NCBI GenBank assembly: GCA_018613055.1
Contig: JAGGQZ010000024.1
Span: forward strand, 48,706 to 112,705
Direction: 5' to 3'
Source: Chryseobacterium sp. ISL-80
GTDB taxonomy: Bacteria > Bacillota > Bacilli > Bacillales > Cytobacillaceae
Length of the DNA stretch: 64,000 nt
A model generated the notes under the pieces. It was not told where the DNA came from, made no database searches, and worked only from the letters and a program-made list of their open reading frames with translations. Positions 14,715 through 44,935 of the stretch are shown one piece after another. The stretch's first letter is position 1, and the number at the start of each line of letters is the position of its first letter. The translations under genes were made by a program, and so were the position numbers.

Positions 14715-15425
14715 GGAATCCACAGGACATATTGGTGAGCCTTTTTTCTGGTTTCTGGGATTTCGTGGCACCAAGATGGCTTATTGGCGACACATTTTTC
14801 CTCTGTCTGGGTTTAAAGTGCTCCAAGACGGCTTATTGGTATCACACTTCTCCAGTTTCTGGGGTTTAAGTGCTTCAATATGGCTTATTGGTGACACGAT
14901 TATCCAGTATATGGGTTTTAAGTGTTCCAATATTGCTTATTGGTGACACGGTTATCCAGTATATGGGTTTCAAGTGTTCCAATATTGCTTATTGGTGACA
15001 AAATTATCCAGTATCTGGGTTTTAGAGGTTCCAATATGCTTTATTGGTGACACACTTTTCCTGTTTCTGGAATTTAAGTGTTCCAAGATGGCTTATTGGT
15101 GGCACGATAATCCAGTTTTTAGGTTTTCGATGTTCCAATACGCTTTATTGGTAACACATTTCTCCAGTTTTTGGGATTTAAGTGCTCCAATATTGCTTAT
15201 TGGCGACAAAATTATCCAATATCTGGGTTTTCTGTGTTCCAAACGCTTTATTGGTGACATAATTATCCAGTTATTGTAATTTAAAGGTTCCAATACGCTT
15301 TAATTAGTGACCTGTTTTTCTTGTTTCTGGGTTTTTTGGACACCAAGAAGGCCTATTGGTGTCCTTTTTTTCACCTTCCTGGGTTTTACGGCACCAACAG
15401 CATCCATTGGTCACCCTTTTGATAA
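14715..15425. repeat. Tandem array 1: 14 units, 52-bp period, CCAATA/TATTGG hairpin
   Basis: The motif ATTGGTGAC or a close variant recurs at 14731, 14783, 14835, 14887, 14939, 14991, 15043, 15095, 15147, 15199, 15250, 15303, 15355 and 15406: intervals are 52 bp with single-base exceptions at the degenerate right end. Each unit has CCAANA-N5-TATTGG, then TGACAC, a TCCAG box, TGGG, and (A)AGTGTT. It fills the gap between pgcA and yhcX. Because 52 is not a multiple of 3, the short frames across it are not conserved, so it is non-coding. No transposase or terminal repeats are present. Confidence 0.95.
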
Positions 15426-15545
15426 TGTTTCTACGGGTAAATCTCCAATCAAAAATGAATGCCATTTAACGGCTTCAATCAATTCCAATACCACTGAAAA
15501 ACACCTGAAGAATTTTGTACATTTTCCCCAGGTGTTGCAGCCATT

Positions 15546-17084
15546 TTACTTTTTATACTGAATCCGGTAAATATCGTGCCTGCGGTCTTTCAGCTGCCTT
15601 ACTGTTCCGTCCTGGCGCTGGCGGCGGAGGATTTCGAGATCGACGTCGCCAATCATCACCATTTCGATGTTCGGGTTCGTTTCGCCGACAATCCCGTCCC
15701 TAGCAAATTCAAAATCCGATGGCGCAAAGATCCCGGACTGGGCATACTGGATATCCATGTTTTCTGTTTGCGGCAGGTTCCCGACTGTTCCCGAGATGAC
15801 TGTGTATACCTGATTTTCGACCGCTCTTGCCTGGGCACAGTAACGAACACGAAGGTATCCCTGGCGATCTTCGGTACAAAATGGAGTGAAGATGATTTTC
15901 GCCCCCATATCGGTAGCGATTCTTGCCAGCTCAGGAAACTCGATATCATAACAGATCTGGATGGCGATTTTGCCGCAGTCTGTATCGAAGACCTTCAATT
16001 CATCGCCCCGGCTGATGCCCCACCATCTTCGTTCATTCGGCGTAATATGGAGCTTATACTGCTTGTCGATTGTGCCGTCGCGTCGGAACAAATAGGAGAT
16101 ATTATAGATTTCTTCATCTTCTTCTTTTACAAAATGGGAGCCGCCGATGATGTTGACATTGTAGCGGACAGCCAGGTCTGTAAAAAGTTCAATATATTGT
16201 TCCGTGTATTCGGCCACCTTTCGGACAGCGAGCGACGGTGATTTTTCATTCATGAACGACATGAGCTGTGTTGTAAAGAGTTCCGGAAAAACTGCAAAAT
16301 CTGAGCCGGCATCCGAAGCGACATCGGTAAAGTACTCAACCTGGTGTGCAAAGTCTTCAAAAGATTCAATTTGCCTCATCATATATTGGACAACGCAAAT
16401 ACGGACCGGGTTGCTTGTTTTGAAAAAGCGCTTCGATTTCGGATGGTAGTCGACATTATTCCATTCCATCAAGGTTGCATATTTGTTTGACTGAAGATCG
16501 TCCGGCAAATAATTCGGATTGATCCTCATTAATATGAAGTCATTCCTTAGCTGGAATGAGAGTACAGGATCATATATTTTATGCGATGCGACCTGCCTGA
16601 CATATTCACGAGGTGACATTTCTTCTGCATGCAGATGGTAATTCGGGATTCGGCCGCCGATGATGATACTCTTCAGGTTCATCTGCCTGGCGAGGTCTTT
16701 TCTCGCCTCATACAGACGGTACCCCACCTTCATCCTTCTGAATTCAGGATGGGTCATGACTTCAATTCCATATAAATTGTAGCCATCGGGATTATGGTTG
16801 GTGATATACCCTTCATCTGTGATGTCATCCCAGCTGTGGCGGTCATCATATTCGTCAAAGTTGATGATCAGGCTGGAACACGAACCGACCACCTTTCCGT
16901 CGTATTCTGCTACGAACTGGCCTTCAGGAAAAATTTCAAGATGACTTTCCAGCTGATCCCTTTTCCAGGGGTCCATTCCAGGAAAGCAGCTATTTTGCAT
17001 TTTGATGATTTCATCAATATCCTCATGCTTCGTATTACGGATAATCATTCTTTTTTCAAATTTGGACAAATCCAGTTCAGTCAT
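15546..17084 (-). CDS. yhcX: GNAT acetyltransferase-nitrilase fusion (YhcX-like)
   Basis: 512 residues. Residues about 12-190 form a GNAT fold (EFRRMKVGYRLYEARKDLA is the acetyl-CoA loop). Residues about 220-500 form a carbon-nitrogen hydrolase with the full Glu-Lys-Cys triad: FPELFTTQ, YKLHITPNE and IQICYDIEFPE. The domain order and length match B. subtilis YhcX. The hydrolase probably acts on a small amide; the natural substrate is unknown. Start at 17082-17084, with AAAGGG 10 nt upstream; the GTG at 17096 overlaps that site and is unlikely. Its 3' end abuts the 52-bp array. Confidence 0.93.
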   Translation of the reverse strand: MTELDLSKFEKRMIIRNTKHEDIDEIIKMQNSCFPGMDPWKRDQLESHLEIFPEGQFVAEYDGKVVGSCSSLIINFDEYDDRHSWDDITDEGYITNHNPDGYNLYGIEVMTHPEFRRMKVGYRLYEARKDLARQMNLKSIIIGGRIPNYHLHAEEMSPREYVRQVASHKIYDPVLSFQLRNDFILMRINPNYLPDDLQSNKYATLMEWNNVDYHPKSKRFFKTSNPVRICVVQYMMRQIESFEDFAHQVEYFTDVASDAGSDFAVFPELFTTQLMSFMNEKSPSLAVRKVAEYTEQYIELFTDLAVRYNVNIIGGSHFVKEEDEEIYNISYLFRRDGTIDKQYKLHITPNERRWWGISRGDELKVFDTDCGKIAIQICYDIEFPELARIATDMGAKIIFTPFCTEDRQGYLRVRYCAQARAVENQVYTVISGTVGNLPQTENMDIQYAQSGIFAPSDFEFARDGIVGETNPNIEMVMIGDVDLEILRRQRQDGTVRQLKDRRHDIYRIQYKK

Positions 17085-17328
17085 ATATTGATGCACCCTT
17101 TCTTAATCGTCTTGCATTTATGTAAAAAAACACCCCAGCATATCCCTATACCCGCAATCAGCAAAATATAATACTCTATATGTAGCTTCTCCTGATGTAT
17201 TGGGAAAAATTATTTCACATAATGTTAATTGAAATATTTTATTACTTTCCTTAAGATGTAATGAGGGATAGTTGTTTCTTTTATAGAGAATGTTTGAATA
17301 GAGATTACATAGCTTAGGGGAGATTAGC

Positions 17329-17766
17329 TTGCAAAAGCCGAAAAAAGATTCAAGGGAAACCTTATTGTTTACTGCATGGGCTACATCCATCATTGCGATG
17401 TTCGGCAGCCTATATTTTTCGGAAATCCGCCAGTATGAACCATGCCTGCTATGCTGGTACCAGAGAATAATGATGTATCCTTTTGCCTTGATACTGGGGA
17501 TAGCCGTTGTGAAGAAGGATTATAAGATTTCTTTTTATACAATGATCATGGCTGCTGTCGGGGGACTGATTTCGCTTTACCATTATTCATTGCAAAAAGT
17601 GCCGTTCATGGCCGATAATGCTGCAACTTGCGGAAGGGTTCCATGTACAGGCCAATACATCAACTGGTTTGGTTTTATCACCATCCCATTCCTGGCTTTG
17701 ACCGCATTCATCATTATTTTTTCTTTAAGCCTGGTTATTTGGAAGAAATCGAAGGAGGAAGCTTAA
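17329..17766 (+). CDS. bdbC: Disulfide bond formation protein, DsbB family (BdbC)
   Basis: 145 residues, four membrane helices. The quinone-linked disulfide CLLC lies at residues 39-42 and the second pair in ATCGRVPC in the outer loop at about 101-106. The QRIMMYP segment after CLLC is typical of BdbC/BdbB. It reoxidises an extracytoplasmic thiol oxidase and passes electrons to menaquinone. The TTG start at 17329 is preceded by GGGGAGATTAGC. The next gene, a thioredoxin-fold oxidase, starts 1 bp after its stop, so the two form an oxidase pair. Confidence 0.93.
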   Translation: MQKPKKDSRETLLFTAWATSIIAMFGSLYFSEIRQYEPCLLCWYQRIMMYPFALILGIAVVKKDYKISFYTMIMAAVGGLISLYHYSLQKVPFMADNAATCGRVPCTGQYINWFGFITIPFLALTAFIIIFSLSLVIWKKSKEEA

Positions 17767-17767
17767 G

Positions 17768-18238
17768 TTGAAAAAAGTCATCATTTTTTTGGTTATTATC
17801 ATAGGATTGTTCGCAGCTTTATTCTTTGTCAGTAAAGCGCAAAATGAGGAAAAATCTGAAGGCAATCCATACGGAAAGGACACGCTACATCCTGAAACCG
17901 TCAAACAGCTGGATGATCCAAACTATCAAAACATCATCCTGCCTGATGAACTCGATAAAAAGCTTGAAGCTGGAGAAAATGTTACGGTTTATTTTTTCAG
18001 CCCAACATGCCCTCACTGCGTTCGCACAACACCAGTGGTCGCACCACTGGCAAAGGATATGGATGTTGATCTAGTACAATACAACCTTCTTGAATTCGAA
18101 CAAGGCTGGAATGACTACGGAATCGAATCGACTCCAACCATTGTCCAGTACAAGGATGGAAAAGAAGTCAACCGGATCGTCGGCTATCAGGAAGAAGCCA
18201 CTTTTAAAGATTGGTTCAATGAGAACACTCTGAAATAA
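17768..18238 (+). CDS. Membrane-anchored thioredoxin-fold thiol oxidase (BdbA-like)
   Basis: 156 residues with one N-terminal membrane anchor (KKVIIFLVIIIGLFAALFF) and an extracytoplasmic thioredoxin domain with redox motif CPHC at residues 81-84 and cis-Pro in STPTIV. CPHC is characteristic of strong oxidases such as DsbA/BdbA. TTG start at 17768, with GGAGGAAGC upstream inside the end of bdbC. It is translationally coupled to bdbC, its presumed reoxidant. The result is disulfide formation in secreted proteins. Could also be named ResA-like, but the context favours oxidation. Confidence 0.88.
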   Translation: MKKVIIFLVIIIGLFAALFFVSKAQNEEKSEGNPYGKDTLHPETVKQLDDPNYQNIILPDELDKKLEAGENVTVYFFSPTCPHCVRTTPVVAPLAKDMDVDLVQYNLLEFEQGWNDYGIESTPTIVQYKDGKEVNRIVGYQEEATFKDWFNENTLK

Positions 18239-18239
18239 C

Positions 18240-18272
18240 GAAAAACGCCTGCGGATTCGCAGGCGTTTTCTT
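18240..18272. terminator. Bidirectional terminator after the bdb pair
   Basis: AAAACGCCTGCG-GATT-CGCAGGCGTTTT with T/A flanks on both sides. Confidence 0.9.
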
Positions 18273-18273
18273 C

Positions 18274-18672
18274 TTATAACAAAAGTCTGTTGGCAGCTTT
18301 GGCATAGGTACTGATATACTCTAGATGGACATGTTTTGATTCAGAGAACTGACTGTAATTGAATGGGAAGCAAATTCCGTAGTCCGTCAAGATCTGGACA
18401 TTTTTACGAAACATGGACTGATATTTTTCAGGAATATGGCCAGACTCCAGGATCGAGATCAAAGTCTGCATACTTGTAATGACCTGGAAAGCGTCTCCGA
18501 GTGTACTGAATCTCTCGAACTGCTCCGGCCTTGTATGTAACACTTCCAGCCTTTCAAATTCATGTATGTCTTCATCCGTGAAGTATAATGGAAAAATATC
18601 AGAGTAAAAATAATTCGCAAGCTCTAACACTTTTTCTTCTTGTCCGGGCGTAGACGCATAAACAATTTTCAA
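18274..18672 (-). CDS. yhcU: YhcU-family protein (DUF5365)
   Basis: 132 residues beginning with TTG at 18670-18672 (MKIVYASTPGQEEKV...), 8 nt after AAGGTGG; the GTG at 18684 is inside that site. The all-soluble product has FYSDIFPLYFTDEDIHEFE and DYGICFPFNYSQFSESK, matching Bacillus YhcU, of unknown function. It is next to yhcT as in B. subtilis. Confidence 0.85.
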   Translation of the reverse strand: MKIVYASTPGQEEKVLELANYFYSDIFPLYFTDEDIHEFERLEVLHTRPEQFERFSTLGDAFQVITSMQTLISILESGHIPEKYQSMFRKNVQILTDYGICFPFNYSQFSESKHVHLEYISTYAKAANRLLL

Positions 18673-18841
18673 TGATCGACCCACCTTTTTTAACCCTTTG
18701 TAATCTAATCGTAATATATATTCCTAGAATAACATATCCATTCCGATTAACCGGGTGGTAATTATGCCCATGCAGGCGGTAAAAGTTGACAAAACCTAAG
18801 GTGAAATGGAATTTTATCTTACACACACAAATAAGGAGATT

Positions 18842-19765
18842 ATGATGATCCAGACAAACAAAAAAGGCAACTGGTTTGAAATCACGGTTCCCGTAGAATG
18901 GGAAAAATACACAGTCGAAACTCTTTTCAAGGACTTTTGGAAGGCACCGAAAAAGCTGGTCCATACCTTCCGGATGGAAAAGGGCGTCTTACTGAATGGA
19001 CAGTTGCCTGATTGGACACTTCCTCTTCGTAAAAGTGAACGACTTAGCGTGAAGCTTTTCACTGAGGAGGAATCGAGCTACGTACCTCAATATTTGAATG
19101 TAGAAGTCCTTTATGAAGATGATCACCTGATTGTCTTCAATAAACCAGCGGGAATGGACACCCATCCAAACGAAGACGGTCAGACGGGCACCCTAGCTAA
19201 TGCTGCTGCATTCCATATGCAGGCAAGTGGTGAGGTCAACCGGCCGCGCCATATTCACAGACTTGACCGGGATACGACTGGTGCTGTCCTTTTTGCAAAA
19301 AATCCTCTCATTGCCGCCATCCTTGATAAGATGCTTGAGGAACGTTCCATCAAAAGAATCTATTTGGCACTGGCAGATGGGATCATCAGGCAGAAAAAAG
19401 GAACAATTGATAAACCAATCGGGCGGGACCGGCATCACCCCACAAGAAGACGAGTATCCGAGACAGGCCAGCATGCGATTACCCATTTTAAAGTTTTGGA
19501 AAAACTTAAACAGAAAAACCTTACCCTCGTCCAGTGTACATTGGATACTGGACGGACACATCAAATCCGTGTCCACTTTAGCTCCATTGGCCATCCGCTG
19601 GCCGGAGACGAGCTGTATGGCGGAAGTGACGCATTTTATCGGCAGGCGCTGCATGCAGCAAAGATGGAATTCACTCACCCGTTTACACAGGAAAAAATAA
19701 TATGCCATGCTCCTTTTATCGACGAGGAACCGATCTTTATTAATATTGATCCAAATGAAATTTGA
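18842..19765 (+). CDS. yhcT: RluA-family pseudouridine synthase (YhcT-like)
   Basis: About 307 residues. The catalytic aspartate motif is HRLDRDTTGAVLFAK (about residue 140), with the RluA box YLALADG and C-terminal DTGRTHQIRVHFSSIGHPLAGDELYGG. It converts a uridine in rRNA or tRNA to pseudouridine; the target is not evident. AAGGAG lies just before ATG 18842/18845, either of which may start. Divergent from yhcU, as in B. subtilis. Confidence 0.93.
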   Translation: MMIQTNKKGNWFEITVPVEWEKYTVETLFKDFWKAPKKLVHTFRMEKGVLLNGQLPDWTLPLRKSERLSVKLFTEEESSYVPQYLNVEVLYEDDHLIVFNKPAGMDTHPNEDGQTGTLANAAAFHMQASGEVNRPRHIHRLDRDTTGAVLFAKNPLIAAILDKMLEERSIKRIYLALADGIIRQKKGTIDKPIGRDRHHPTRRRVSETGQHAITHFKVLEKLKQKNLTLVQCTLDTGRTHQIRVHFSSIGHPLAGDELYGGSDAFYRQALHAAKMEFTHPFTQEKIICHAPFIDEEPIFINIDPNEI

Positions 19766-19824
19766 TATATTAGTGGAACATGGAATGCCACACCTCACTC
19801 GAACAACCAGAAATTGCGCACAAA

Positions 19825-19850
19825 AATGCCCTTCCGAATCCGGAAGGGCT
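19825..19850. terminator. Bidirectional terminator yhcT / glsB-like
   Basis: GCCCTTCCG-AATC-CGGAAGGGC, flanked by A and T tracts, between the two convergent genes. Confidence 0.8.
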
Positions 19851-19863
19851 CATTTACCTTTTA

Positions 19864-20121
19864 TTAGTCAGCTCTGCGCATGCTCTTCATTACAAGGCTG
19901 ACGATGAATACTAGTGCGATAGCACCGATCAAGGCCGGAATAATCGCAAAGTCAGCAACTACAGGTCCCCAGTCACCCAGGATTGCTTGTCCAATCCAAG
20001 CACCTACGAAACCTGCGATGATGTTACCAATGACTCCGCCTGGAATATCTCTTCCAAGGATTAGTCCTGCAATCCATCCAATAATACCACCAATAATTAA
20101 TGCCCAAAGAAAACTTAACAT
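19864..20121 (-). CDS. GlsB/YeaQ/YmgE-family stress membrane protein
   Basis: 85 residues with three Gly-rich hydrophobic segments (IIGGIIGWIAGLILG, IIAGFVGAWIG). This is the pattern of the transglycosylase-associated/YeaQ family. Members are small cytoplasmic-membrane proteins raised in general stress; the molecular role is unknown. The start has AAGGAGGAAGAACAATT upstream. I saw no clear sigma-B promoter. Confidence 0.88.
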   Translation of the reverse strand: MLSFLWALIIGGIIGWIAGLILGRDIPGGVIGNIIAGFVGAWIGQAILGDWGPVVADFAIIPALIGAIALVFIVSLVMKSMRRAD

Positions 20122-20515
20122 AATTGTTCTTCCTCCTTATGATGTGAATGTAATGTAAAGTAGTAGTGCCAGGTGTTCATGCACCTATTTTTCATACTGC
20201 AGTGTTTCTAAAATTAGGCTGTGCTGATGAAAATTGCTTCCCGGGAGCTTACCAGCTTGCTCTAATTTTATCTTACCTCTTTAACAGTGATGTTAAACCT
20301 GAGATTCTGCAGCAGACAAGCAGTCAATCTGAGATGTTGAATCATGTTGTTTTCTGCTTGTACACCTACATTACCACCCTCAGATTGTTTTAAAACCTTC
20401 AATATCCAAAATCCTTTTTTAAAACGTTTCGTCGGGTTTTATCTCTGTTTTTAGTGTATCCATTTTGAAAAATAAAAAACGGACTGATAAAAATTCAGTC
20501 CGTCTTTTGCTTATA
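20122..20515. other. Intergenic stretch without a recognised gene
   Basis: No protein with a ribosome binding site and family resemblance is seen. It contains AGGTG-N6-CACCT at 20171-20186 followed by ATTTTT, and the terminator of the next gene (20467-20506). Otherwise featureless to me. Confidence 0.4.
20467..20506 (-). terminator. Intrinsic terminator of aldo/keto reductase gene
   Basis: Minus strand: ACGGACTGA-loop-TCAGTCCGT followed by TTTTTTATTTT. Confidence 0.85.
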
Positions 20516-21343
20516 TTAAAAATCGATATGATCGGGATCAGCCCCAAAACGCTGATCTTTATTGAGGTCATCAATCTCCGCCATTTCTTGTTGACTAAGC
20601 TGGAAATCAAATACGTCGGCATTTTCTTTAAGCCTTGATGGCGTGACCGATTTTGGAATCGGAATAATTTCATGCTGCAGGTGCCACCTTAAAATGACCT
20701 GAGCCGGAGTCTTTCCATGGCGGTCAGCGATGCTACCCAAAACACGTTCATCCAGAAACCTTCCTCTGGATAATGGCGACCATGCTTCCACCCTAATGTC
20801 ATTTTGCCGGCAGAAATTCTGAAGTTCCGTCTGCGCCAGCAGTGGATGAAGTTCAACCTGATTGATTACTGGCCTTTCTTTACATTGGCTTAGGAGATCC
20901 TGCAAATGATGGATTTTAAAATTGCTGACACCAATAGCCTTTACCCTGCCCTCTTGATAAAGTTTTTCGAGGGCACGCCATGTGTCCACATACATTCCTT
21001 TGACTGGCCAGTGTACCAGATACAAATCCAGATACTCGAGGCCCAGCCTCTCCATGCTTTCATCGAATGCTCGTAACGTATTGTCATATCCCTGTTCAGA
21101 ATTCCAGACCTTCGTGGTAATGAACAATTCTTCTCTTGGGATGCTGCTGTTCCGGATAGCTCTTCCGACACCTTCTTCATTCTGGTAAAAAGAAGCCGTA
21201 TCAATCAGCCGGTAGCCGTATTCCAGTGCTGTATGAATCGTTTCTTCAATTTGTGTCCCTTGCTCTACTTTGTATACACCAAGACCCAGAACAGGCATTT
21301 CCACTCCATTATGTAATTTGATTTTATCAAAAATACTGGCCAT
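20516..21343 (-). CDS. Aldo/keto reductase (YtbE/YvgN type), paralogue A
   Basis: 275 residues, the full (beta/alpha)8 AKR. The catalytic tetrad Asp-Tyr-Lys-His is visible in LIDTASFYQNEEGVG, ITTKVW and LVHWP; NADPH-site segments IPKSV and RLKENADVFDF are present. These enzymes reduce aldehydes such as glyoxal and methylglyoxal. The product resembles the reductase at 45.0 kb but clearly differs in sequence, so it is an old paralogue. Transcribed alone, divergent from ykaA-pit. Confidence 0.92.
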   Translation of the reverse strand: MASIFDKIKLHNGVEMPVLGLGVYKVEQGTQIEETIHTALEYGYRLIDTASFYQNEEGVGRAIRNSSIPREELFITTKVWNSEQGYDNTLRAFDESMERLGLEYLDLYLVHWPVKGMYVDTWRALEKLYQEGRVKAIGVSNFKIHHLQDLLSQCKERPVINQVELHPLLAQTELQNFCRQNDIRVEAWSPLSRGRFLDERVLGSIADRHGKTPAQVILRWHLQHEIIPIPKSVTPSRLKENADVFDFQLSQQEMAEIDDLNKDQRFGADPDHIDF

Positions 21344-21732
21344 GAAATCCCTCTTTTTTTATCCATTTTATCCTTCAGCGGAAATGATTACAAATCAAAA
21401 CGGCTGCCGAAAAGCAGCCGCTAAATCTATATAAACGGCTCATTGGCCGAAATTTTCATCTTCACTCAATTTCTAATTTCCCGGCAAAAAATTGTCCTAA
21501 ACAGCTGGACATATTCATTTTTTAAAAATGGGCTTTTCCTTCTGAAAATTGTTTAGGGGATGATTAAAAGAGGAATTCAATATTAATCCATTATTAAGAA
21601 TGTAAAAATCGAAACAAGAGTTTTATTAAATTTATGTAAATTTTTACGCAAACATCTTCATATTTCGACATCTTTAAGCTAAAATGAATTTCGCTCTAAA
21701 AAATTTATTTGGATAACAGTGGGGGGACCATA
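21344..21732. other. A+T-rich divergent promoter region
   Basis: Lies between the AKR gene and ykaA-pit. It holds a small hairpin GGCTGC-CGAAAA-GCAGCC near 21402 without a long T run, and long A/T tracts. No gene is seen. Confidence 0.4.
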
Positions 21733-22350: not shown

Positions 22351-22362
22351 GGAGCCTGAGAC

Positions 22363-26349: not shown

Positions 26350-26880
26350 ACTTGGACTTACTTTCAGACAGCTATTCTTCGTTTCCCGCCAAACCTGTCC
26401 GAACCTGGATTTACTTCGGACAACTTTACTTCGGCTCCCGCCAAACCTGTCCGAACTTGGACTTACTTCGGACAGCTTTTCACCTCCAGCACCCGAACCT
26501 GTCAAGATCCCCTCGTTTTCTTGACAGCTTTCCACCCCCAGCACCCGAACCTGTCAAGATTCCCTCGTTTTCTTGACAGCTTTTCACCTCCAGCACTCGA
26601 ACCTGTCAAAATTACCTCGTTTTCTTGACAGCTTTTCACCCTCAGCACCCAAACCTGTCAAAATTACCTCGTTTTCTTGACAGCTTTTCACCTCCAGCAC
26701 CCAAACCTGTCAAAATTACCTCGTTTTCTTGACAGCTTTTCACCCTCAGCACCCAAACCTGTCAAAATTATCTCGTTTTCTTGACAGCTTTTCACCTCTA
26801 GCACCCGAACCTGTCAAAATTACCTCGTTTTCTTGACAGCTTTTCACCTCCAGCACTCGAACCTGTCAAAATCCCCCCGA
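26350..26880. repeat. Tandem array 2: 10 units, exact 52-bp period, CTGTC/GACAG hairpin
   Basis: GACAG or its variant occurs at 26367, 26419, 26471, 26523, 26575, 26627, 26679, 26731, 26783 and 26835: every interval is exactly 52 bp. Each unit has CTGTCAA-N15-TTGACAG followed by a 23-bp linker. In the left units the stem is CTGTCCGAA-N11-TTCGGACAG; from 26499 on it is CTGTCAA/TTGACAG, so both arms changed together. The region lies between the DHOD-like gene and a YceI remnant, is non-coding, and is related in its core to array 3 at 44.4 kb. Confidence 0.96.
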
Positions 26881-37079: not shown

Positions 37080-37081
37080 CG

Positions 37082-38146: not shown

Positions 38147-38162
38147 TGTCATCTCTCCTTTG

Positions 38163-38393
38163 TTACACAGATTTACGAACCTTCTCAGGCCTATAGACAG
38201 TGATCACAGAATCCGGACACATTTGCGCGCATTTTCCGCAACTGATACAGTTCTCCTGATCCGTGACGACGGCTGGCCGGTATCCCTTTTCATTCAAGTA
38301 ATCAGCCAGATAGATCACATTTGTCGGACAAGCATTCACGCACAACTTACACGATTTGCAGGTCTCTTCGTTAAAAACAACTCTCTTCTCCAC
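38163..38393 (-). CDS. 2[4Fe-4S] ferredoxin (delta subunit) of the oxoacid oxidoreductase
   Basis: 76 residues with two CxxCxxCxxxCP clusters: CKSCKLCVNACP and CISCGKCAQMCP. GTG start at 38391-38393 with AAAGGAGGGCAAAAGCA upstream. It accepts electrons from the alpha/beta subunits and probably passes them to a soluble carrier. Confidence 0.93.
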   Translation of the reverse strand: MEKRVVFNEETCKSCKLCVNACPTNVIYLADYLNEKGYRPAVVTDQENCISCGKCAQMCPDSVITVYRPEKVRKSV

Positions 38394-38408
38394 TGCTTTT
38401 GCCCTCCT

Positions 38409-39086
38409 TTACATTTCCCACGGCAATTTTAAATACCTGGAGATCACTTTCACTGGGGCTGCCCACTCAATATCGACAGCTTGTTTTTCTAAATGCTGCG
38501 GCAGTACCGTGTACACCAGTGGAATCCCCAGCTGATCTGATAGAGCCATACTCAGTTTCAAGCCATTCGCTACATCCTGAACCGTGGTTTCATTTCCAAC
38601 ATTTGAATTATTGATTATACCGGTAATCCTCAGTCTTGAAGCTTTTTCAATTTTCTTTAACGTATCCATTGCACCTTCCAGATTGCTGACATAAGGCCGG
38701 TTGGCATTCAGGACAAAGAGTACCTCTGGCTTCATCTCATTCCACTCGTTGTAAAATTGGCCCAGTGCTGTCGCACCATCCTTATCCCCGCCGGCATCGA
38801 CGATCAGCTTATATGCCGGATCATAAATCACCCTGCTCAAATCACCGGGAACAATCGGTAAATCCGCAGCAGCTAGCCTTTCAGCAGGTGCGATCAATTC
38901 AATCCCTTTTTCTAAAAAAATGTCCCTCGCATCCCTGGCACGATAATACGGATTAACTATATCAAGATCGGCTACTGCGACTCTATCCCTTTTCCTTGCT
39001 GCATCTATCGCCAGATTGATTGATAGTTCGGTCTTGCCGCTGCCGAAATGGCCGGTAATGATGGTAATATCCGCACCTAGCTTCAC
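38409..39086 (-). CDS. P-loop ATPase (MinD/CobQ/ParA class) leading the oxoacid oxidoreductase operon
   Basis: About 225 residues from GTG 39084-39086, preceded by AAAGGGGGTGGAGCC. The deviant Walker A GHFGSGKTELSINLA, VADLDIVNPYYRARD and LIVDAGGDKDGATALG are those of SIMIBI-class ATPases. Nucleotide-binding partners of this type often load metal cofactors or deliver Fe-S clusters. As first gene of the operon it may assemble or activate the ferredoxin oxidoreductase; this is an inference from position. Alternative upstream starts lack a ribosome binding site. Confidence 0.85.
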   Translation of the reverse strand: MKLGADITIITGHFGSGKTELSINLAIDAARKRDRVAVADLDIVNPYYRARDARDIFLEKGIELIAPAERLAAADLPIVPGDLSRVIYDPAYKLIVDAGGDKDGATALGQFYNEWNEMKPEVLFVLNANRPYVSNLEGAMDTLKKIEKASRLRITGIINNSNVGNETTVQDVANGLKLSMALSDQLGIPLVYTVLPQHLEKQAVDIEWAAPVKVISRYLKLPWEM

Positions 39087-39103
39087 GGCTCCACCCCCTT
39101 TTT

Positions 39104-39129
39104 TGAAAGCGTTTTCATTTACCATTATA
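39104..39129 (-). promoter_or_regulatory. cre box and -10 of the oxoacid:ferredoxin oxidoreductase operon
   Basis: Minus strand TGAAAACGCTTTCA (39104-39117) matches the catabolite-responsive element TGWNANCGNTNWCA at every defined position. A TATAAT (39124-39129) lies just upstream, so the cre overlaps the start of transcription, the position used by CcpA to repress. Confidence 0.82.
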
Positions 39130-39176
39130 GTAGCTTTTTTTTCTCTTCTCTTTGACAAAAGTCACGTTTTCGATAA

Positions 39177-39208
39177 AAAAGGAGTTCATGATGAACTCCT
39201 TTTTTATC
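39177..39208 (-). terminator. Terminator of the 106-residue gene
   Basis: AAAAAAGGAGTTCAT-GATGAACTCCTTTTTT perfect hairpin with T tail on the minus strand. Confidence 0.9.
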
Positions 39209-39212
39209 ATTC

Positions 39213-39533
39213 TTATATTGCGAAACTCAGGACGACCTTTTGCGGCATGTCCTGTTCTTCGTATACATCTTTTCTCAATCTCTCACATGAAGGCATTTCA
39301 TAGGAAAAATCCTGCACTGCTTCAGGAATCAATCCGTCAGCTTTCAATGTTTCAAATACCCTCTGCATTGCATCATCCGTATCCAGGCATTCATCTGAGC
39401 CTTCATATTTAAAACAATCTACACATGTCTCCACGATATTTGCGTCAACCTGCTCCTGAGTGAAAACCAGTTTTGCGCCAGCCATTTTTTCCACTTCGCG
39501 ATTTTCCAACTCAATAATCGTCGTTACGTTCAT
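39213..39533 (-). CDS. Conserved hypothetical protein with cysteine motif
   Basis: 106 residues, start at 39531-39533 with GGAGGTGCCAATA upstream. I do not recognise the family. It is soluble and acidic. It has ETCVDCFKYEGSDECLD (C-x2-C-x8-C) and a later PSCERL, suggesting metal or redox function. It has its own terminator just before the oxoacid oxidoreductase operon, so it is a separate transcript upstream of it. Confidence 0.75.
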   Translation of the reverse strand: MNVTTIIELENREVEKMAGAKLVFTQEQVDANIVETCVDCFKYEGSDECLDTDDAMQRVFETLKADGLIPEAVQDFSYEMPSCERLRKDVYEEQDMPQKVVLSFAI

Positions 39534-39686
39534 TATTGGCACCTCCGTTTGGATTACACTATCATTATAGTAAGTTGTCATCCAAACAGGGGTGTTTTGC
39601 CGATTAGTTCATTTTTTATTCACATATTTCATTCAAAAAGTTGTCAAAACTCCGTAATGGCAGGACTTTCGATACCAGCGCAGGGA

Positions 39687-40448
39687 TTACTCCATCGCAT
39701 CAATTTCAACCAAGTCCCATGGAGTTATCATCCCGATCGGCTTTTCTGAAGGCTTTCCAGTTTCAGTAATCAGAACGGCTTCCAGTTTCCTGCTTTCCAA
39801 ATGGTATTTTTCAAAAATATCTTCAACGGTGAAAATATCCGAATCCTTTGCCGCAAATTCAACGAATCTTTGTGAATGAAGATACTCAAGGTCACTGATA
39901 TTACTGTCTTCGAGCGCCTTTCCGCCCTCCAGCAAATTTCCCGCGAGCCACTGCGCTATACAATTCGATGTCAGCAGCCATTTAAAGCCATTTTCATCAT
40001 AAACGGGGAATTGCGAATAAGCTCTTTTCTGGATGATTTTCAAAACATCGATCAAGCCGGTTTCTTCGTGAAAATAGAACACAGGCCTCGTCGCAATCTC
40101 CAACGCATTTTTCGGATCAGATACCTGGCTGGCAATCATTTCGATTTTCTCCACTACTTTTTCATGTGGTTCAGCTATGTAAAAATCAAGCGCAATTTTA
40201 TCGTGGACAAGTGAATTCCTTAGCCGGCCGTACATTTTTAAATCATGATAGTACTTCCGGATAATGGAATGCTTCGCATAATTGACCCTCAGCAGTTCTG
40301 AATACTTATCTGTCGTTCCATTCCGCGTAATCCTCTGCAACCATGAATGAATTCGGTTGAAAGCCACTTCAAATCTCTCTGAACGCTTCTCATTTTGGAT
40401 AATCGCCAATTTTATTAACTCCTTTTCAAACGATCTTACAAATTCCAT
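39687..40448 (-). CDS. CBS-domain protein with helical N-terminal domain
   Basis: 253 residues. The N-terminal about 110 residues are helical and charged (GRLRNSLVHDKIA). A CBS pair follows: ATRPVFYFHEETGLIDVLKIIQKRAYSQFPVYDENG and VEDIFEKYHLESRKLEAVLITETG...IGMITPWDLV. CBS pairs bind adenosine nucleotides. The effector part is not recognised; the RNSLVH segment recalls HEPN-type or C-terminal nucleotidyl-like helices but is too weak to name. Monocistronic; the 21-bp array begins 55 bp upstream of its start. Confidence 0.8.
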   Translation of the reverse strand: MEFVRSFEKELIKLAIIQNEKRSERFEVAFNRIHSWLQRITRNGTTDKYSELLRVNYAKHSIIRKYYHDLKMYGRLRNSLVHDKIALDFYIAEPHEKVVEKIEMIASQVSDPKNALEIATRPVFYFHEETGLIDVLKIIQKRAYSQFPVYDENGFKWLLTSNCIAQWLAGNLLEGGKALEDSNISDLEYLHSQRFVEFAAKDSDIFTVEDIFEKYHLESRKLEAVLITETGKPSEKPIGMITPWDLVEIDAME

Positions 40449-40503
40449 TGTATTTATAGGGATTTTCTCCTATTATATCGTGAATTTAGGGATTAAGTTT
40501 TTG

Positions 40504-40608
40504 AATTCCGCGAAATTGAATGATTTTTCCGCGATATCTACCTGTAATTCCGCGAAACAACCATCTAATTTCGCGAATTTCCACCATAATTCCGCGACTT
40601 GGAAAACA
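40504..40608. repeat. Tandem array 5: five units, exact 21-bp period, palindromic TTCCGCGAA core
   Basis: Units start at 40504, 40525, 40546, 40567 and 40588. Each has AATTCCGCGAA or a close variant (AATTTCGCGAA), a near-palindrome, plus a less conserved 10-bp linker ending CAT/ACC-like. It sits between the CBS gene and the pbuG riboswitch. Period 21 bp equals two helical turns, so the cores face one side of the DNA. Confidence 0.9.
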
Positions 40609-40756
40609 GTATCTAAATTTGACAGCCCACTTCCAGAACATTTAATGTCCTCCTGCTAATAATCAGAAAAAATCAAATAGATAAACTTCCGGAAATCCAA
40701 TTGACCTAGAAAAAAATAACTGATACTATCTCTAGTATTATTTAAATCTATCATTA

Positions 40757-40829
40757 TTCCTTGTATATGTTCGAGAATATGGCTCGAACGTTTCTACCAT
40801 GCTACCGTAAAAGGCGTGACTACAAGGGA
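40757..40829 (+). promoter_or_regulatory. Purine (guanine-type) riboswitch of pbuG
   Basis: P1 arms CCTTGTA and TACAAGG enclose the conserved junction: GAATATGG, GTTTCTACC, CCGTAAA and GTGACTAC. P2 is TTCGAG/CTCGAA and P3 is ATGC.../GCGT-like. The discriminating nucleotide (position 74 of the B. subtilis xpt aptamer) is C in GACTAC, so guanine/hypoxanthine rather than adenine is the ligand. Confidence 0.95.
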
Positions 40830-40875
40830 CTTACATATTTGCCACTCTTTTTTGGCATCTATTTGTCCTTTGTGG

Positions 40876-40912
40876 TACTCCGGCAGCATGCACTGCCGGA
40901 GTTTTTTATTTT
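40876..40912 (+). terminator. Riboswitch-controlled terminator ahead of pbuG
   Basis: ACTCCGGCAG-CATGCA-CTGCCGGAGT followed by TTTTTATTTT, 30 bp before the pbuG ribosome binding site. Guanine binding is expected to favour it. Confidence 0.92.
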
Positions 40913-40943
40913 CCAAAAAATAACAACCAGGAGGACAGCACAT

Positions 40944-42236
40944 ATGAAAAATTTTTTCCAATTCGCAGAACGAAACACCAGTTATAAACAAGAGTCTCTT
41001 GCCGGGATTACGACGTTCTTGTCGATGGCGTACATTCTTGTCGTCAACCCGATGATCCTCAGCCAGGCTGGCATGGACAAGGGAGCCGTTTTTACAGCTA
41101 CCGCTCTTTCCGCCATCATTGGCTCTCTGCTCATTGGCCTGCTTGCCAATTTTCCAATTGGAATCGCTCCAAGCATGGGCTTGAATTCCTTTTTCACTTT
41201 TAGCGTCAGCATCGGGATGGGTGTTGAATGGGAGGTCGCTCTTACCGGCGTCTTTATTGCGGGAGTCCTGTTTGTCATCCTCAGTCTTTTGAAGATCCGT
41301 GAAAAAATCATAAATGTCATCCCACAGGACTTGAAGCATGCCATCGCAGCGGGAATCGGCTTTTTCGTCGCCTTCATCGGCCTGAAAAATGCTGGAATCA
41401 TTGTTGGCAGTGAAGCGACATTTGTATCGATTGGCAACCTCACATCGGGACCGGTATTGCTTGCTTTGTTCGGCTTCATCATCAGTGTGGTCATGATGGC
41501 CCGCGGTGTCAGCGGCGGGATTTTTTACGGAATGGTCATTGCCACGATCATCGGGATTTTTACAGGCCTGATTGAAAAACCTGATGCTGTTATCGGCACG
41601 GTTCCAGACATCTCACCTACTTTCGGTGTCGTTTTCAACCATTTGGGCGATATTTTCTCACCAGATGTGCTGGCTGTCATTTTCACTTTCCTTTTCGTTG
41701 CATTCTTCGATACGGCTGGTGCGCTGATTGCGGTAGCGAGTCAGGCTGGATTGATGAAGGATAATAAAATCCCGAATGCAGGTCGTGCCCTGCTTGCAGA
41801 TGCTGGCTCGGCGGTTGCCGGTGCTGTACTTGGCACATCAACAACAGCATCATTCGTTGAATCATCTGCGGGGATTGCAGTCGGGGGCCGCACGGGTTTC
41901 ACTTCCGTGATTATTGCGGCCTGCTTTAGCGCCGCCTTGTTCTTCTCCCCTGTACTATCCGTGATCACGCCGGAAGTTACCGCACCGGCCCTGATTATCG
42001 TTGGTGCGCTGATGGCAACTGAAATCAGCAAGATTGACTGGAGTAACCTTGCCGTCATCATTCCTTCGTTCGTGACGATCATTATGATGCCGCTCACTTT
42101 CAGTGTCGCAACAGGGATCGCGCTTGGTTTCATTCTTTACCCGTTGATGATGCTTGGCATGGGCAAATCCAGAGATGTCCACCCAATTATGTATGTCCTT
42201 GGATTCCTGTTTGTCGGTTATTTTATATATGTATAG
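40944..42236 (+). CDS. pbuG: NCS2-family guanine/hypoxanthine permease (PbuG), copy 2
   Basis: 430 residues. AGITTFLSMAYILVVNPMIL, APSMGLNSFFTFSV, FFDTAGALIAVASQAG and STTASFVESSAGIAVGGRTG identify an AzgA-type purine permease. Start ATG 40944 follows AGGAGGACAGCACAT; the longer upstream frame overlaps the riboswitch and is not used. It imports guanine and hypoxanthine. Feedback by the guanine riboswitch matches pbuG of B. subtilis. Confidence 0.95.
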   Translation: MKNFFQFAERNTSYKQESLAGITTFLSMAYILVVNPMILSQAGMDKGAVFTATALSAIIGSLLIGLLANFPIGIAPSMGLNSFFTFSVSIGMGVEWEVALTGVFIAGVLFVILSLLKIREKIINVIPQDLKHAIAAGIGFFVAFIGLKNAGIIVGSEATFVSIGNLTSGPVLLALFGFIISVVMMARGVSGGIFYGMVIATIIGIFTGLIEKPDAVIGTVPDISPTFGVVFNHLGDIFSPDVLAVIFTFLFVAFFDTAGALIAVASQAGLMKDNKIPNAGRALLADAGSAVAGAVLGTSTTASFVESSAGIAVGGRTGFTSVIIAACFSAALFFSPVLSVITPEVTAPALIIVGALMATEISKIDWSNLAVIIPSFVTIIMMPLTFSVATGIALGFILYPLMMLGMGKSRDVHPIMYVLGFLFVGYFIYV

Positions 42237-42242
42237 CAATGT

Positions 42243-42282
42243 AAAGCCCGCAGCTATTAAGTTTGCGGGCTTTCTTTTTTAA
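42243..42282 (+). terminator. Terminator of pbuG
   Basis: AAAGCCCGCA-loop-TGCGGGCTTT followed by CTTTTTT. Confidence 0.88.
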
Positions 42283-42283
42283 A

Positions 42284-42318
42284 AAGGAATCAGCCCTGCA
42301 CAGGCTGATTCCTTTTAA
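42284..42318 (-). terminator. Terminator of degV
   Basis: AAGGAATCAGCC-loop-GGCTGATTCCTTTT, located between the pbuG terminator and the degV stop. Confidence 0.85.
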
Positions 42319-42326
42319 ATTATGTT

Positions 42327-43172
42327 CTATTCATTTACCCATGCCAAGCCGATAGTGCCTTGGCCAGTATGTGTGCCGGCAACCGGACTGAATGTAGTCG
42401 TTGTAAAAGAGATTTCCGGGAAACGCTGCTGAAGTTCTGCCTGCCATTCGTTTGCCAATTGCTGCACATTTCCATGAATGACACTCGCTTCCTTTACATT
42501 GGCAGAGGCCTCCTCTAAAATTTGGAACAGGCGCTCCTTCACTTTTCTTTCTGTCCTGATTTTATCAAACAGAACAACCTTCCCATCATCGAACCTGACG
42601 ATCAGCTTCAGTTTGATCAAGCTGCCGATGATCACCTGGGTAGTCGACAGGCGGCCGCCTTTATGCAACTGCTCAAGGCTACCCGGCGCCATATACAGAT
42701 TGGCCTTGTCAGGCAGCGTCCTTAAATAGGATACGATTTCATCATAGGATTTGCCTTCTTTTTGAAGCTCAATCCCCTTTTCAACCATGCGTCCCAATGG
42801 AAAGGAACCAATTTTCGAATCGATGACATCCACCTTGAAGTCCACCATGCTGGATGCAGCTACTGAAGATTGGTAAGTTCCTGTAAGGGCACTTGAAGCG
42901 TGGATCGCAATCGCATGCTTGTATTGCTCCTTAAGCTTCTGGTAAAGTTCCACAAACTCGCCGATCGCGGGCTGCGATGTTTTAGGCAGTACCTTTGATG
43001 CCGCAAGCTTTGGATAAAAATCCTCGGCTGTAATATCAACGCCCTCCAAATAGGATTCTTCGCCAAAAATAATGCTTAAAGGTACAACATATATATGATT
43101 TTCTTTTATGAATTCTTCAGATAGTGAAGATGTACTGTCGGTTACCCATGCAATGTTATTTAATGTCGTCAT
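42327..43172 (-). CDS. DegV-family fatty-acid-binding protein
   Basis: 281 residues. WVTDSTSSLSEEF, VVPLSIIFGEESYLEGVDIT, TSQPAIGEF and ALTGTYQS are the N-lobe signatures; LHKGGRLS and PVAGTHTGQGTIGLAW the C-lobe. DegV (FakB-type) proteins bind a fatty acid for phosphorylation by a FakA kinase. Bacilli often hold several copies. Monocistronic. Confidence 0.93.
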   Translation of the reverse strand: MTTLNNIAWVTDSTSSLSEEFIKENHIYVVPLSIIFGEESYLEGVDITAEDFYPKLAASKVLPKTSQPAIGEFVELYQKLKEQYKHAIAIHASSALTGTYQSSVAASSMVDFKVDVIDSKIGSFPLGRMVEKGIELQKEGKSYDEIVSYLRTLPDKANLYMAPGSLEQLHKGGRLSTTQVIIGSLIKLKLIVRFDDGKVVLFDKIRTERKVKERLFQILEEASANVKEASVIHGNVQQLANEWQAELQQRFPEISFTTTTFSPVAGTHTGQGTIGLAWVNE

Positions 43173-43380
43173 GTTCTCTCCTGTTCTCCGTCTAAAATAT
43201 ATCGATGAATATGCTTACATTTCCCATGATATATGAAGTTCACTTATAAAACTATTAGTAATTTTTAAGAATACAATTTATTTGTTAGAAACTATAAAAA
43301 AGTTAATAACATTGACACATGTTTTTACTTCCGGCCCAACGGGAACAATGGTATAAACTCGACCGGGAGGAACTCGTTCC

Positions 43381-44049
43381 ATGGACCCTTATATCTATGC
43401 TTTATATTCCCTCATCTACTTAATTTTATTCCTGTGGGGTTTAAAAGCTTCAATCAAATACGGATTTTTCAGGTGGATGAATGTGCTTTTACTCGTAACG
43501 TTTGGACTGGTATATGACAATTTGATTCTTGCGTTTGGAAGCATGATTGGCGAAGGCTCTTTTTTAAAAAACATGAACCTTTTGCGTTTTTGGTTTCATG
43601 CCCTTTTCACTCCATTACTGATTATGTTTTCCTGGGCCGCAGCCAGTGAGACGGCCACCTCATGGTTAAAAGGGCGAGGCGGGTTGCTTGTCGCTGGATT
43701 CCTCACACTGGCCATGGTCATTTCTGAACTTGTTCAAAACACGATAGGTCTGAAGTTGGAGCCAGACCACTCATATGGAGTGTTAAGCTATGAATCTTCA
43801 GGCTCCCATGGTCCGCCAATCATGATCATAGGCGTTACAGCCGCTTTGCTTATTGCCGGCATCACCCTTTGGAAAAAAAGGAAGTGGAAATGGATGGCCA
43901 TCGGTGTCATCCTAATGGGAATCGGCAGTGCTGTTCCCATTCCATTGGAAAGCGATGCAGCGACCAACGGTTTTGAACTGATCCTCCTCATCTCACTATG
44001 GGCTACACAGACATTTCTAGAAAAGAACCAGGCCGTGAAGGTGGCCTGA
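43381..44049 (+). CDS. Hypothetical membrane protein, seven or more helices
   Basis: 222 residues beginning MDPYIYALYSLIYLILFLW, preceded by GGGAGGAACTCGTTCC. Seven hydrophobic segments alternate with short charged loops (LRFWFHALFTPLLIMFSW; IMIIGVTAALLIAGITLWKKRKWKW). I recognise no family with certainty; the charged FHALFTPL helix recalls carotenoid-cyclase-like or rhodopsin-like folds only weakly. It converges on the small thioredoxin gene, leaving 5 bp between stops. Confidence 0.75.
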   Translation: MDPYIYALYSLIYLILFLWGLKASIKYGFFRWMNVLLLVTFGLVYDNLILAFGSMIGEGSFLKNMNLLRFWFHALFTPLLIMFSWAAASETATSWLKGRGGLLVAGFLTLAMVISELVQNTIGLKLEPDHSYGVLSYESSGSHGPPIMIIGVTAALLIAGITLWKKRKWKWMAIGVILMGIGSAVPIPLESDAATNGFELILLISLWATQTFLEKNQAVKVA

Positions 44050-44054
44050 TTGCT

Positions 44055-44282
44055 TTAGAATAATCTCTTGATTTCCTCCGCTGTTAACTGTTTGCCTGCC
44101 GAGACTACTTTTTCATCAATGACCACAGCGGGGGTGCAATTTGCGACATACTTTTCGATTTCCTTCCTATTTTCGATCTTTTCAACAATAGCCGCGACCC
44201 CCGCTTCCTGGATCGCTAAATTAATATTATCCTCAAGAACCTTGGATTTTTCACAACCCGTTCCCAACACTTTAATGATCAT
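44055..44282 (-). CDS. Small thioredoxin-fold protein with CxxS redox site
   Basis: 75 residues resembling the MJ0307/redox-active disulfide protein 2 family: MIIKVLGTGCEKSKVLEDNI, then VANCTPAVVIDEKVVSAGK. The family usually has GCxxC; here residue 13 is Ser (C10-E-K-S13), so it is monothiol. The second region CTPAVV supplies the cis-Pro. Such proteins may act as thiol transferases in arsenite or organoarsenic and general redox operons. The start is preceded by GGAGGGAAAGGACA. Confidence 0.82.
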   Translation of the reverse strand: MIIKVLGTGCEKSKVLEDNINLAIQEAGVAAIVEKIENRKEIEKYVANCTPAVVIDEKVVSAGKQLTAEEIKRLF

Positions 44283-44389
44283 GTCCTTTCCCTCCTTCTG
44301 ATACTGTATAAAGTGAATCTACCCCATTCCTGAAAATGAAAGACTCCTACGGGCAGATTTTTGTGTTTTGAAACAGGTATTTGGCCGAG

Positions 44390-44935
44390 ATCAGGTTCTG
44401 AATTTGACAGCTTGTACCGCATTTGCTTTGTACCTGTCAAAATAACCGCAGGTTCTTGACAGCTTTCACTGTCAACACCTCTAACCTGTCAAAATTACGA
44501 GGCTTTCTTGACAGCTTTTACTGCTAACACCCGTAACCTGTCACAATAACCGCACTTTTTTGACAGCTTTTACTGCTAACACCCCCAACTTGTCAAAATA
44601 ACGGCACTTTCTTGACAGCTTTTACTGCTAACACCCGTAACCTGTCAAAATAACGGTGCTTTCTTGACAACTTATACTGCTATCACCTCTAACTTGTCAA
44701 AATAACGGTACTTTCTTGACAGCTTTTACTGCTAACACCCCCAAGCTGTCAAAATAACGCCACTTTCTTGACAGCTTTTACTCACAACACCTCCAACCTG
44801 TCAAAATAACAGCTGGTTCTTGACAGCTTTTACTGCTAACACCCGTAACCTGTCAAAATAACAGCACTTTCCTGACAGCATTCCCTCCCAGCACCCGTAA
44901 CCTGTCAAAATAACGACACTCCTTCCCCCCCAAAC
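44390..44935. repeat. Tandem array 3: 10 units, exact 52-bp period, related to array 2
   Basis: GACAG (or GACAA) starts at 44406, 44458, 44510, 44562, 44614, 44666, 44718, 44770, 44822 and 44874: every interval 52 bp. Units share CTGTCAAAATAAC, a variable GGCAC-like loop, TTTCTTGACAG and CTTTTACTGCTAACACC. The CTGTCAA-N15-TTGACAG hairpin equals that of array 2, but the linker differs. Here the array is in a divergent gap (thioredoxin leftward, yvgN rightward). Confidence 0.96.

What the first reader, a model, noticed from the sequence alone, without database searches (positions are those of the whole stretch)
14715..44935. Common design: four arrays at 52 bp and one at 21 bp, all whole helical turns
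52 bp equals five turns at 10.4 bp and 21 bp equals two turns at 10.5 bp. Sequences differ by locus, but each unit has a short inverted repeat, all are intergenic, and they appear upstream, downstream and between divergent genes. The shared geometry across unrelated sequences points to one mechanism that makes or reads phased hairpins: a DNA-architectural system, a repeat-expansion process with fixed step, or a family of structured RNAs. This is my main candidate for something undescribed.
Basis: partly seen in the sequence, partly recalled or inferred. Interest (0 to 1): 0.88.

Follow-up and report, generated by a model that had tools for sequence, protein, structure and literature searches.

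The report
Nucleases paired with their own satellites
In many Bacillus relatives, genes for nuclease-related (NERD) proteins sit beside their own block of evenly spaced DNA repeats, repeats of the same kinds lie at many other places in the genome and mostly point one way relative to the predicted direction of DNA copying, and the proteins likely bind these repeats and may spread them, which would be a new kind of bacterial satellite DNA.

Summary
The arrays are real and their shared geometry is no coincidence. In 0.84 Mb of the same genome, 55 of 58 non-coding tandem arrays have a period of 51-53 bp (35, one counted as its 104-bp double) or 20-21 bp and doubles (20); two genomes in which searches found neither NERD class had none in 0.4 Mb. 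The cause traced here lies outside the window: NERD (nuclease-related) genes with a zinc ribbon and a predicted winged helix. Class I genes have a 51-53-bp array at the 3' end (56 of 60 loci); class II genes have 20-21-bp arrays, mostly 5' (19 of 30). Period follows protein class; sequence differs per gene. Every window array family has a partner gene in the genome, though two of the four partner genes carry an in-frame stop. Among close paralogues, array similarity tracks the recognition-helix region (rho 0.71), not the nuclease domain (0.015). 52-bp units are polar with inferred replication direction (20 of 22 loci in one complete genome). Best mechanism: each protein binds its own array, and nuclease action there likely drives amplification and spread. 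Binding and cutting are untested.

The parts
14754..15271 (.). Array A, 52-bp units with CCAAT-N7-ATTGG; about 10 copies (autocorrelation stretches it to 14687-15340). Best own-genome match: the array after class I NERD gene L171 (contig 30).
   Evidence: similarity 0.69 to L171; shuffled-unit 99% level 0.56. Present in sisters G085, G220, short in G115, absent in G143 and G194.
26353..26479 (.). Array B1, 52-bp units with TTCGGACAG/CTGTCCGAA arms. Own-genome match: the array after class I NERD gene L174 (contig 31; gene has one in-frame stop).
   Evidence: 0.69 to L174; 0.71 to the sister-species array L181.
26471..26872 (.). Array B2, 52-bp units with TTGACAG/CTGTCAA arms, joined in 52-bp register to B1. 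Own-genome match: the array after class I NERD gene L169 (contig 13).
   Evidence: 0.73 to L169; ten unit marks, nine steps of 52. Site empty in four sisters; the fifth (G220) has a 53-bp array matching its own NERD gene L259.
40507..40599 (.). Array D, 21-bp direct repeats of TTCCGCGAA (five marks), between divergent genes, upstream of a purine riboswitch. Same core and spacing as the array at the 5' side of class II NERD gene L165 (contig 15; gene has one in-frame stop).
44432..44920 (.). Array C, 52-bp units with TTGACAG/CTGTCAA arms, about 9 copies. Own-genome match: the array after class I NERD gene L169.
   Evidence: 0.73 to L169.

Best explanation
Every array family in the window matches an array that sits beside a NERD-protein gene elsewhere in the same genome, and that protein, predicted to carry a nuclease fold and a winged helix, likely binds its own array through the winged helix. 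Shown: class I genes carry 51-53-bp arrays at the 3' end and class II genes 20-21-bp arrays, mostly at the 5' side; arrays of the same families recur at other intergenic sites; array similarity follows the recognition-helix region of the protein. Inferred: dimers sit on the palindromic arms of successive 52-bp units and so on one face of the helix (5 turns), while class II proteins read direct repeats every 2 turns. Inferred and least certain: the nuclease domain, whose active-site residues are conserved, nicks or cuts the array, and repair at replication forks changes copy number, homogenises units and copies arrays to new intergenic sites in one orientation. Gene plus array would then be a selfish satellite, and arrays that lose their gene would decay.
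For: Linkage: own genome 6 of 6 class I genes with a 52/53-bp array 3', 5 of 5 class II genes with a 20-21-bp array 5', 0 for the single third-kind gene; background 24 of 726 ORFs. Across the order 28 of 30 class I and 19 of 30 class II; 56 of 60 class I loci in all. Co-occurrence: 43 of 45 pattern-bearing genomes have class I NERD against 56 of the other 204, p 3e-18; 14 of 14 chosen array-bearing genomes, including Trichococcus and Sedimentibacter. Specificity: rho 0.71 for residues 276-302 against 0.015 for residues 1-150 in 29 close pairs, 0 of 1000 permutations; helix 279-289 is the predicted recognition helix. The odd 53-bp period also follows the partner: the arrays after L168, L247 and L259 are 53 bp, and so is the dispersed G220 array that matches L259. 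Turnover: site empty or filled by another family in sisters; arrays with a partner gene in the genome more homogeneous and longer. Active-site residues kept in both classes. Polarity with inferred replication.
Against: No binding or cutting was observed. Three of the 11 array-linked NERD genes in the own genome have an in-frame stop, among them the partners of B1 and D. 56 class I-bearing genomes lack the GACA pattern (other families not searched) and 2 pattern-bearing genomes lack class I NERD. 7 of 30 loci have no 51-53-bp array on either side, though 2 of these are class II-like hits and 1 ends 99 bp after the gene. Eight of 30 class II loci have no 20-42-bp array on either side. Over all 1225 protein pairs the array correlation is weak (rho 0.27). 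Sixteen of 35 sampled arrays have no partner gene found in the genome. The homogeneity test rests on families grouped by eye.
Confidence: 0.6

Rival explanations
1. Host function: the arrays are polar chromosome landmarks, working like KOPS/SRS-type motifs, and NERD proteins act there in replication, segregation or fork repair; arrays are kept by selection for the host rather than by selfish drive.
For: Polarity flips with GC skew in complete genomes; arrays occur at many intergenic sites and 0 of 31 lie between divergent genes; conserved protein partner.
Against: Sites differ between sister species; class I NERD is patchy (50 of 106 genera, weak matches included); many different specificities per genome; some partner genes interrupted.
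Confidence: 0.25
2. Defence: NERD proteins are nucleases held on chromosomal arrays and released or activated against foreign DNA; arrays act as storage or sensing sites.
For: The NERD domain is weakly related to that of PglW (BREX) and MAD6; patchy distribution and fast change of specificity suit an arms race.
Against: No full-length match to a defence protein in PADLOC or NCBIfam; the arrays read by the proteins are chromosomal; only 1 IMG/VR contig has the GACA 2.5-unit pattern.
Confidence: 0.1
3. Passive satellites: hairpin-prone repeats expand by replication slippage; NERD genes merely lie beside them.
For: Arms are palindromic and the polarity fits orientation-dependent repeat stability, a known effect (recalled).
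Against: Period follows protein class, non-coding arrays were absent in 0.4 Mb of two genomes without detected NERD classes, and array family follows the recognition-helix region.
Confidence: 0.03
4. Structured RNA: the arrays are transcribed as hairpin arrays in 3' regions.
For: Palindromic arms; 52-bp arrays lie downstream of a gene.
Against: Orientation to the neighbouring gene is not fixed for dispersed arrays (8 of 23 pyrimidine-rich on the gene-sense strand), while orientation to GC skew is (32 of 35); no Rfam match on the arrays. RNA folding was not tested.
Confidence: 0.02

Closest known systems
NERD (nuclease-related domain) proteins, Pfam PF08378
   Same: The partner proteins belong to this family by HMM.
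   Different: No paper in the searches made links NERD proteins with tandem DNA arrays (listings only).
Homing endonucleases (recalled)
   Same: A nuclease-family gene placed next to DNA it likely recognises; patchy presence, gene decay.
   Different: Partner DNA is a tandem array with many dispersed copies that lack the gene, not a single insertion site.
Plasmid iterons and centromere repeats such as those bound by Rep proteins or AspA (recalled; AspA appears as a fold match)
   Same: Tandem sites spaced by about whole helical turns; winged-helix reader; class II spacing of 20-21 bp resembles iterons.
   Different: Dispersed over the chromosome, many families per genome, reader joined to a nuclease domain.
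KOPS/SRS and other skewed chromosome motifs (recalled)
   Same: Orientation linked to replication direction.
   Different: Arrays of 52-bp palindromic units, many sequence families, paired nuclease-family genes, gain and loss between sister species.
REP/RAYT elements (recalled)
   Same: Dispersed palindromic repeats with a partner gene whose product is a DNA-processing enzyme.
   Different: Partner is NERD, not a Y1 transposase; units are long tandem arrays of fixed period.

Membership tests
NERD family (PF08378) | NERD domain above the curated cut-off | tested here: met
   12 of 12 own-genome matches over cut-off; 5 of 5 class I proteins of other genomes.
PD-(D/E)XK nuclease superfamily | Conserved E, D, (D/E)xK and Q residues | tested here: met
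   10 of 10 in A1; 46-47 of 47 in A3; 34 of 34 in A4.
PD-(D/E)XK nuclease superfamily | Nuclease core fold | tested here: inconclusive
   Model residues about 3-198 align with Can2, Card1, McrC, PspGI and other nucleases, but at middling Z (best 8.3, rmsd 3.2, 120 aligned).
PD-(D/E)XK nuclease superfamily | DNA cleavage | not testable with these tools
   Needs protein.
Winged-helix DNA-binding proteins | Three helices and a wing | tested here: inconclusive
CRISPR array | Constant repeats separated by unique spacers | tested here: not met
   Whole 52-bp units repeat, 73-93% match between adjacent copies in the window.
REP/RAYT | Y1 (HUH) transposase partner | tested here: not met
   Partners match NERD only above Pfam cut-offs.
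Homing endonuclease | Gene lies within and spreads through its own recognition site | tested here: inconclusive
   Gene lies beside its array; spread of the gene with the array was not followed.
KOPS/SRS-type motifs | Orientation switches at origin and terminus | tested here: met
   G115: 20 of 22 loci, with switches near both GC-skew changes; origin and terminus inferred from skew only.
KOPS/SRS-type motifs | Read by an FtsK/SpoIIIE translocase | not testable with these tools
   Needs experiment.
Restriction-modification | Cognate methyltransferase | not tested
   No search made for methyltransferases beside the NERD genes.

The most novel reading that the evidence does not exclude
A new class of bacterial selfish DNA: winged-helix NERD nucleases that each build, homogenise and spread a private, helically phased satellite array, copied at replication forks in one orientation, with new specificities arising by replacing the recognition helix while the nuclease domain stays the same.
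Probability: 0.45. Interest if true: 0.95.

Novelty: categorically new. Interest (0 to 1): 0.9.

Why it matters
If true, bacteria have a satellite-DNA system with a known reader: by extrapolation from the sampled stretches roughly 100-200 arrays of the 52-bp kind per genome in this genus, several protein paralogues each with its own repeat family, and a period set by protein class. It would turn a common annotation ('nuclease-related domain-containing protein') into a testable function. Close paralogues that differ in the recognition-helix region and in the array are natural experiments on DNA recognition; the polarity makes replication-linked repeat amplification testable in a bacterium.

Tried and rejected
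Rfam at gathering cut-offs gives tRNAs, 5S rRNA and two riboswitches in the window, none on the arrays. Neighbour-gene clustering first gave translated arrays and common families (response regulators, ABC transporters, SDR enzymes); of the five clusters inspected NERD was the one placed regularly beside the array. A viral origin has little support: 1 contig in IMG/VR. The whole-set NERD/array correlation is weak (rho 0.27); the signal appears in the C-terminal region among close pairs. In one search pairs were sorted by eye into same and different array family; one search repeats the test without that sorting. Pyrimidine bias relative to neighbouring genes was not significant for dispersed arrays (8 of 23, p 0.21) and led to the replication test. 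Class II arrays were not tested for polarity or for reader specificity. PDB sequence search found weak zinc-ribbon matches. PADLOC, NCBIfam and PHROGs gave weak matches, the better ones to the NERD domain of PglW, MAD6 and phrog_21557. Paper searches found no precedent (listings and abstract starts only, no paper opened; most subscription papers are not held). Rows dropped: nine weak class I hits (E about 1e-31 to 1e-35, probably another class) were left out of the NERD-positive group; none of the nine genomes has the GACA pattern. In one search five of 60 loci were found through the array itself (51 of 55 without them). Sample bias: all sampled contigs of the own genome came from the hit list; 34 of 40 stretches tile contigs 1, 8 and 9, and 6 on contigs 7, 13, 16, 32 and 33 were placed with hits in mind.
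Full report
1. The observation. TRF and autocorrelation confirm three 52-bp loci (one made of two families) and one 21-bp array in the window. The two families at 26.35-26.87 kb meet in exact 52-bp register: ten unit marks, nine steps of 52. Two other loci show such junctions: L017 with a step of 52, L039 with 260 = 5 x 52.

2. Genome-wide test. The window lies in a 4.75-Mb draft genome in 35 contigs (G000), probably a Mesobacillus (named relatives of its class II protein; inference). In 839,531 bases (window plus 40 stretches) TRF finds 58 non-coding arrays: 31 at 52, 2 at 51, 1 at 53, 1 at 104; 8 at 20, 8 at 21, 2 at 40, 2 at 42; three others at 32, 34 and 35. The 15 coding arrays have periods divisible by three. 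In a sister species (G115, 400 kb) 10 of 18 non-coding arrays are at 51-52, 7 at 20-42 and one at 18. Two genomes of the order without a class I or class II hit (G009, G013; 200 kb each) have no non-coding array. The contigs sampled in the own genome all came from the hit list, so density is not a random estimate; the G115, G009 and G013 stretches were evenly spaced.

3. A common frame. Several families share GACA-N25-TGTC-N19 = 52 bp with different extended arms. Two-unit matches number 617 in the own genome, with 0 for the reversed-pattern control. Over 56 array consensuses the best 8-bp arm pairing averages 7.2 of 8 against 5.8 for shuffles. Another group, including window array A, has CCAAT-N7-ATTGG instead.

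4. The partner. Clustering ORFs of the 113 loci gave NERD proteins of about 302 aa in 6 loci, with the array directly 3' in 5. The own genome has 12 NERD places. Six are class I, and all six have a 52/53-bp array after the 3' end, of different families. Five are class II (about 335 aa), and all five have a 20-21-bp array at the 5' side. One of a third kind has none. Background: 24 of 726 ORFs have a 52-type array within 150 bp of the 3' end. In one locus per genome across the order, 28 of 30 class I genes have a 51-52-bp array 3' (of the two misses, one ends 135 bp after the gene); class II genes have 20-21/40-41-bp arrays 5' in 19 of 30, and 20-42-bp arrays on either side in 22 of 30. With one script over all class I loci examined then, 56 of 60 (two of the four misses are contig ends). 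In 249 genomes of the order, 43 of 45 with the GACA pattern have class I NERD, against 56 of the other 204 (p 3e-18; nine weak hits counted as negative). In 14 array-bearing named genomes that I picked for diversity all 14 have class I NERD. Of 30 loci there 20 have a 3' array of 50-54 bp and 3 more a 5' one only. At least two of these genomes look the same as genomes (identical places), so the sets overlap.

5. Window arrays and partners. A, B1, B2 and C match the arrays after L171, L174, L169 and L169 at 0.69-0.73 (shuffled 99% level 0.56); B1 matches the sister-species array L181 slightly better (0.71 against 0.69). D has the core and 21-bp spacing of the array beside class II gene L165. 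L174 and L165 have an in-frame stop each, as has L172. None of the 12 NERD places lies in the window.

6. What reads the array. AlphaFold2 gives class I (pLDDT 93.8) and class II (94.1) the same plan: NERD domain, zinc ribbon, three helices and a wing. The N-terminal part aligns with PD-(D/E)XK nucleases at middling Z; the class II C-terminal part with MarR/ArsR-type winged helices and AspA, also at middling Z. Among 29 pairs of class I proteins at least 78% identical over residues 1-150 (25 proteins), array similarity correlates with identity over residues 276-302 (rho 0.71, 0 of 1000 permutations) and not with residues 1-150 (rho 0.015). Over all 1225 pairs of 50 proteins the correlation with the full protein is 0.27. 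L254 and L250 are 90% identical over residues 1-150 and 26% over 276-302, and have different arrays. The predicted recognition helix is 279-289. Active-site residues are kept in both classes.

7. Movement and decay. At site B four sister species have no array by TRF; the fifth, G220, has a 53-bp array whose best match is the array after its own NERD gene L259, also 53 bp. At site A two of five have none and three have CCAAT-type arrays. In the own-genome sample 19 arrays of families with a partner gene in the genome are more homogeneous and longer than 16 without (medians 86 vs 80%, p 0.0046; 8.8 vs 5.05 copies, p 0.018; families grouped by eye, arrays not fully independent). Likely partner genes for some orphan families exist in sisters: L248 for ATGACGGACA, L251/L254 for GGGCACAT. 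For GGACATTT and CGACCGAA none was found.

8. Polarity. In the own genome 30 of 33 arrays agree within their family in orientation relative to contig GC skew (some strand calls are near ties), and the purine-rich strand is the GC-skew-positive strand in 32 of 35. In G220 (one contig) an oriented pattern gives 80 reverse matches, all listed and all below 2.41 Mb (19 loci), and 63 forward matches of which 20 are listed: loci at 441 kb and 2.457 Mb, then four from 2.88 to 3.55 Mb. GC skew turns negative between 2.49 and 2.58 Mb, so 441 kb and 2.457 Mb are exceptions by skew; one right-arm stretch at 3.9 Mb has positive skew. In G115 all 97 matches are listed: where skew is positive 10 loci are reverse and 2 forward, where negative 10 are forward and 0 reverse, with switches near both skew changes (loci counted by hand, sign between samples interpolated). 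Around 20 class I genes in 9 genomes (7 of them new to this test), 16 run head-on to inferred replication, against 60 of 290 and 17 of 111 ORFs in G115 and G220. All 19 NERD-adjacent arrays found there have the purine-rich strand on the leading strand (0.53-0.75), also beside the four co-directional genes; one gene had no array, and one locus has a skew near zero. Part of the purine effect could be compositional; the motif-level flips are harder to explain so.

9. Mechanism. Shown: linkage, period by class, covariation with the recognition-helix region, polarity, differences between sister species. Inferred: binding, as dimers, on one face of the helix. Inferred and less certain: nuclease-driven, fork-linked amplification and spread. 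No binding or cutting was observed.

10. Novelty. Paper searches found no report joining NERD proteins with tandem arrays or describing 52-bp arrays of this kind (listings only). Comparison with homing endonucleases, iterons, REP/RAYT and KOPS is recalled.

Noticed in passing
window 26446-26498; L017 1253-1305; L039 1461-1721: Arrays of the TTCGGACAG and TTGACAG families are joined head to tail without losing the 52-bp register, as if one family converts into or recombines with the other.
   Followed up: partly
G000:C13 end (L169), C1 start (L029), C8 end; G085:C15 end (L178): Several draft contigs end inside or at these arrays, so short-read assemblies seem to break there.
   Followed up: no
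G253:C12:302965-303192 and G253:C19:223954-224178 (Natribacillus): Matches to the C-terminal reader part alone (model residues 226-301) in open frames of 99 and 105 aa: possible stand-alone reader domains.
   Followed up: no
window 2039-2138 (-) and 40741-40842 (+): Guanidine-I and purine riboswitches; the 21-bp array D lies just upstream of the purine riboswitch.
   Followed up: no
L276, L278, L287 (Trichococcus): Here 52-bp arrays lie at the 5' side of the class I gene (on both sides in L278), unlike most Bacillaceae.
   Followed up: no
L162 (IMGVR_UViG_3300007759_000741): One viral-collection contig carries the GACA-type array; it may be host DNA.
   Followed up: no
class I NERD genes: NERD genes themselves mostly run head-on to inferred replication (16 of 20), against about 15-21% of ORFs in two sister genomes.
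   Followed up: partly
own genome, TTTTATAGCGA and TTTATTGGCGA 20-21-bp arrays: Class II-type arrays are also dispersed at many intergenic sites; the TTTATTGGCGA family had no partner among the five class II genes inspected.
   Followed up: no
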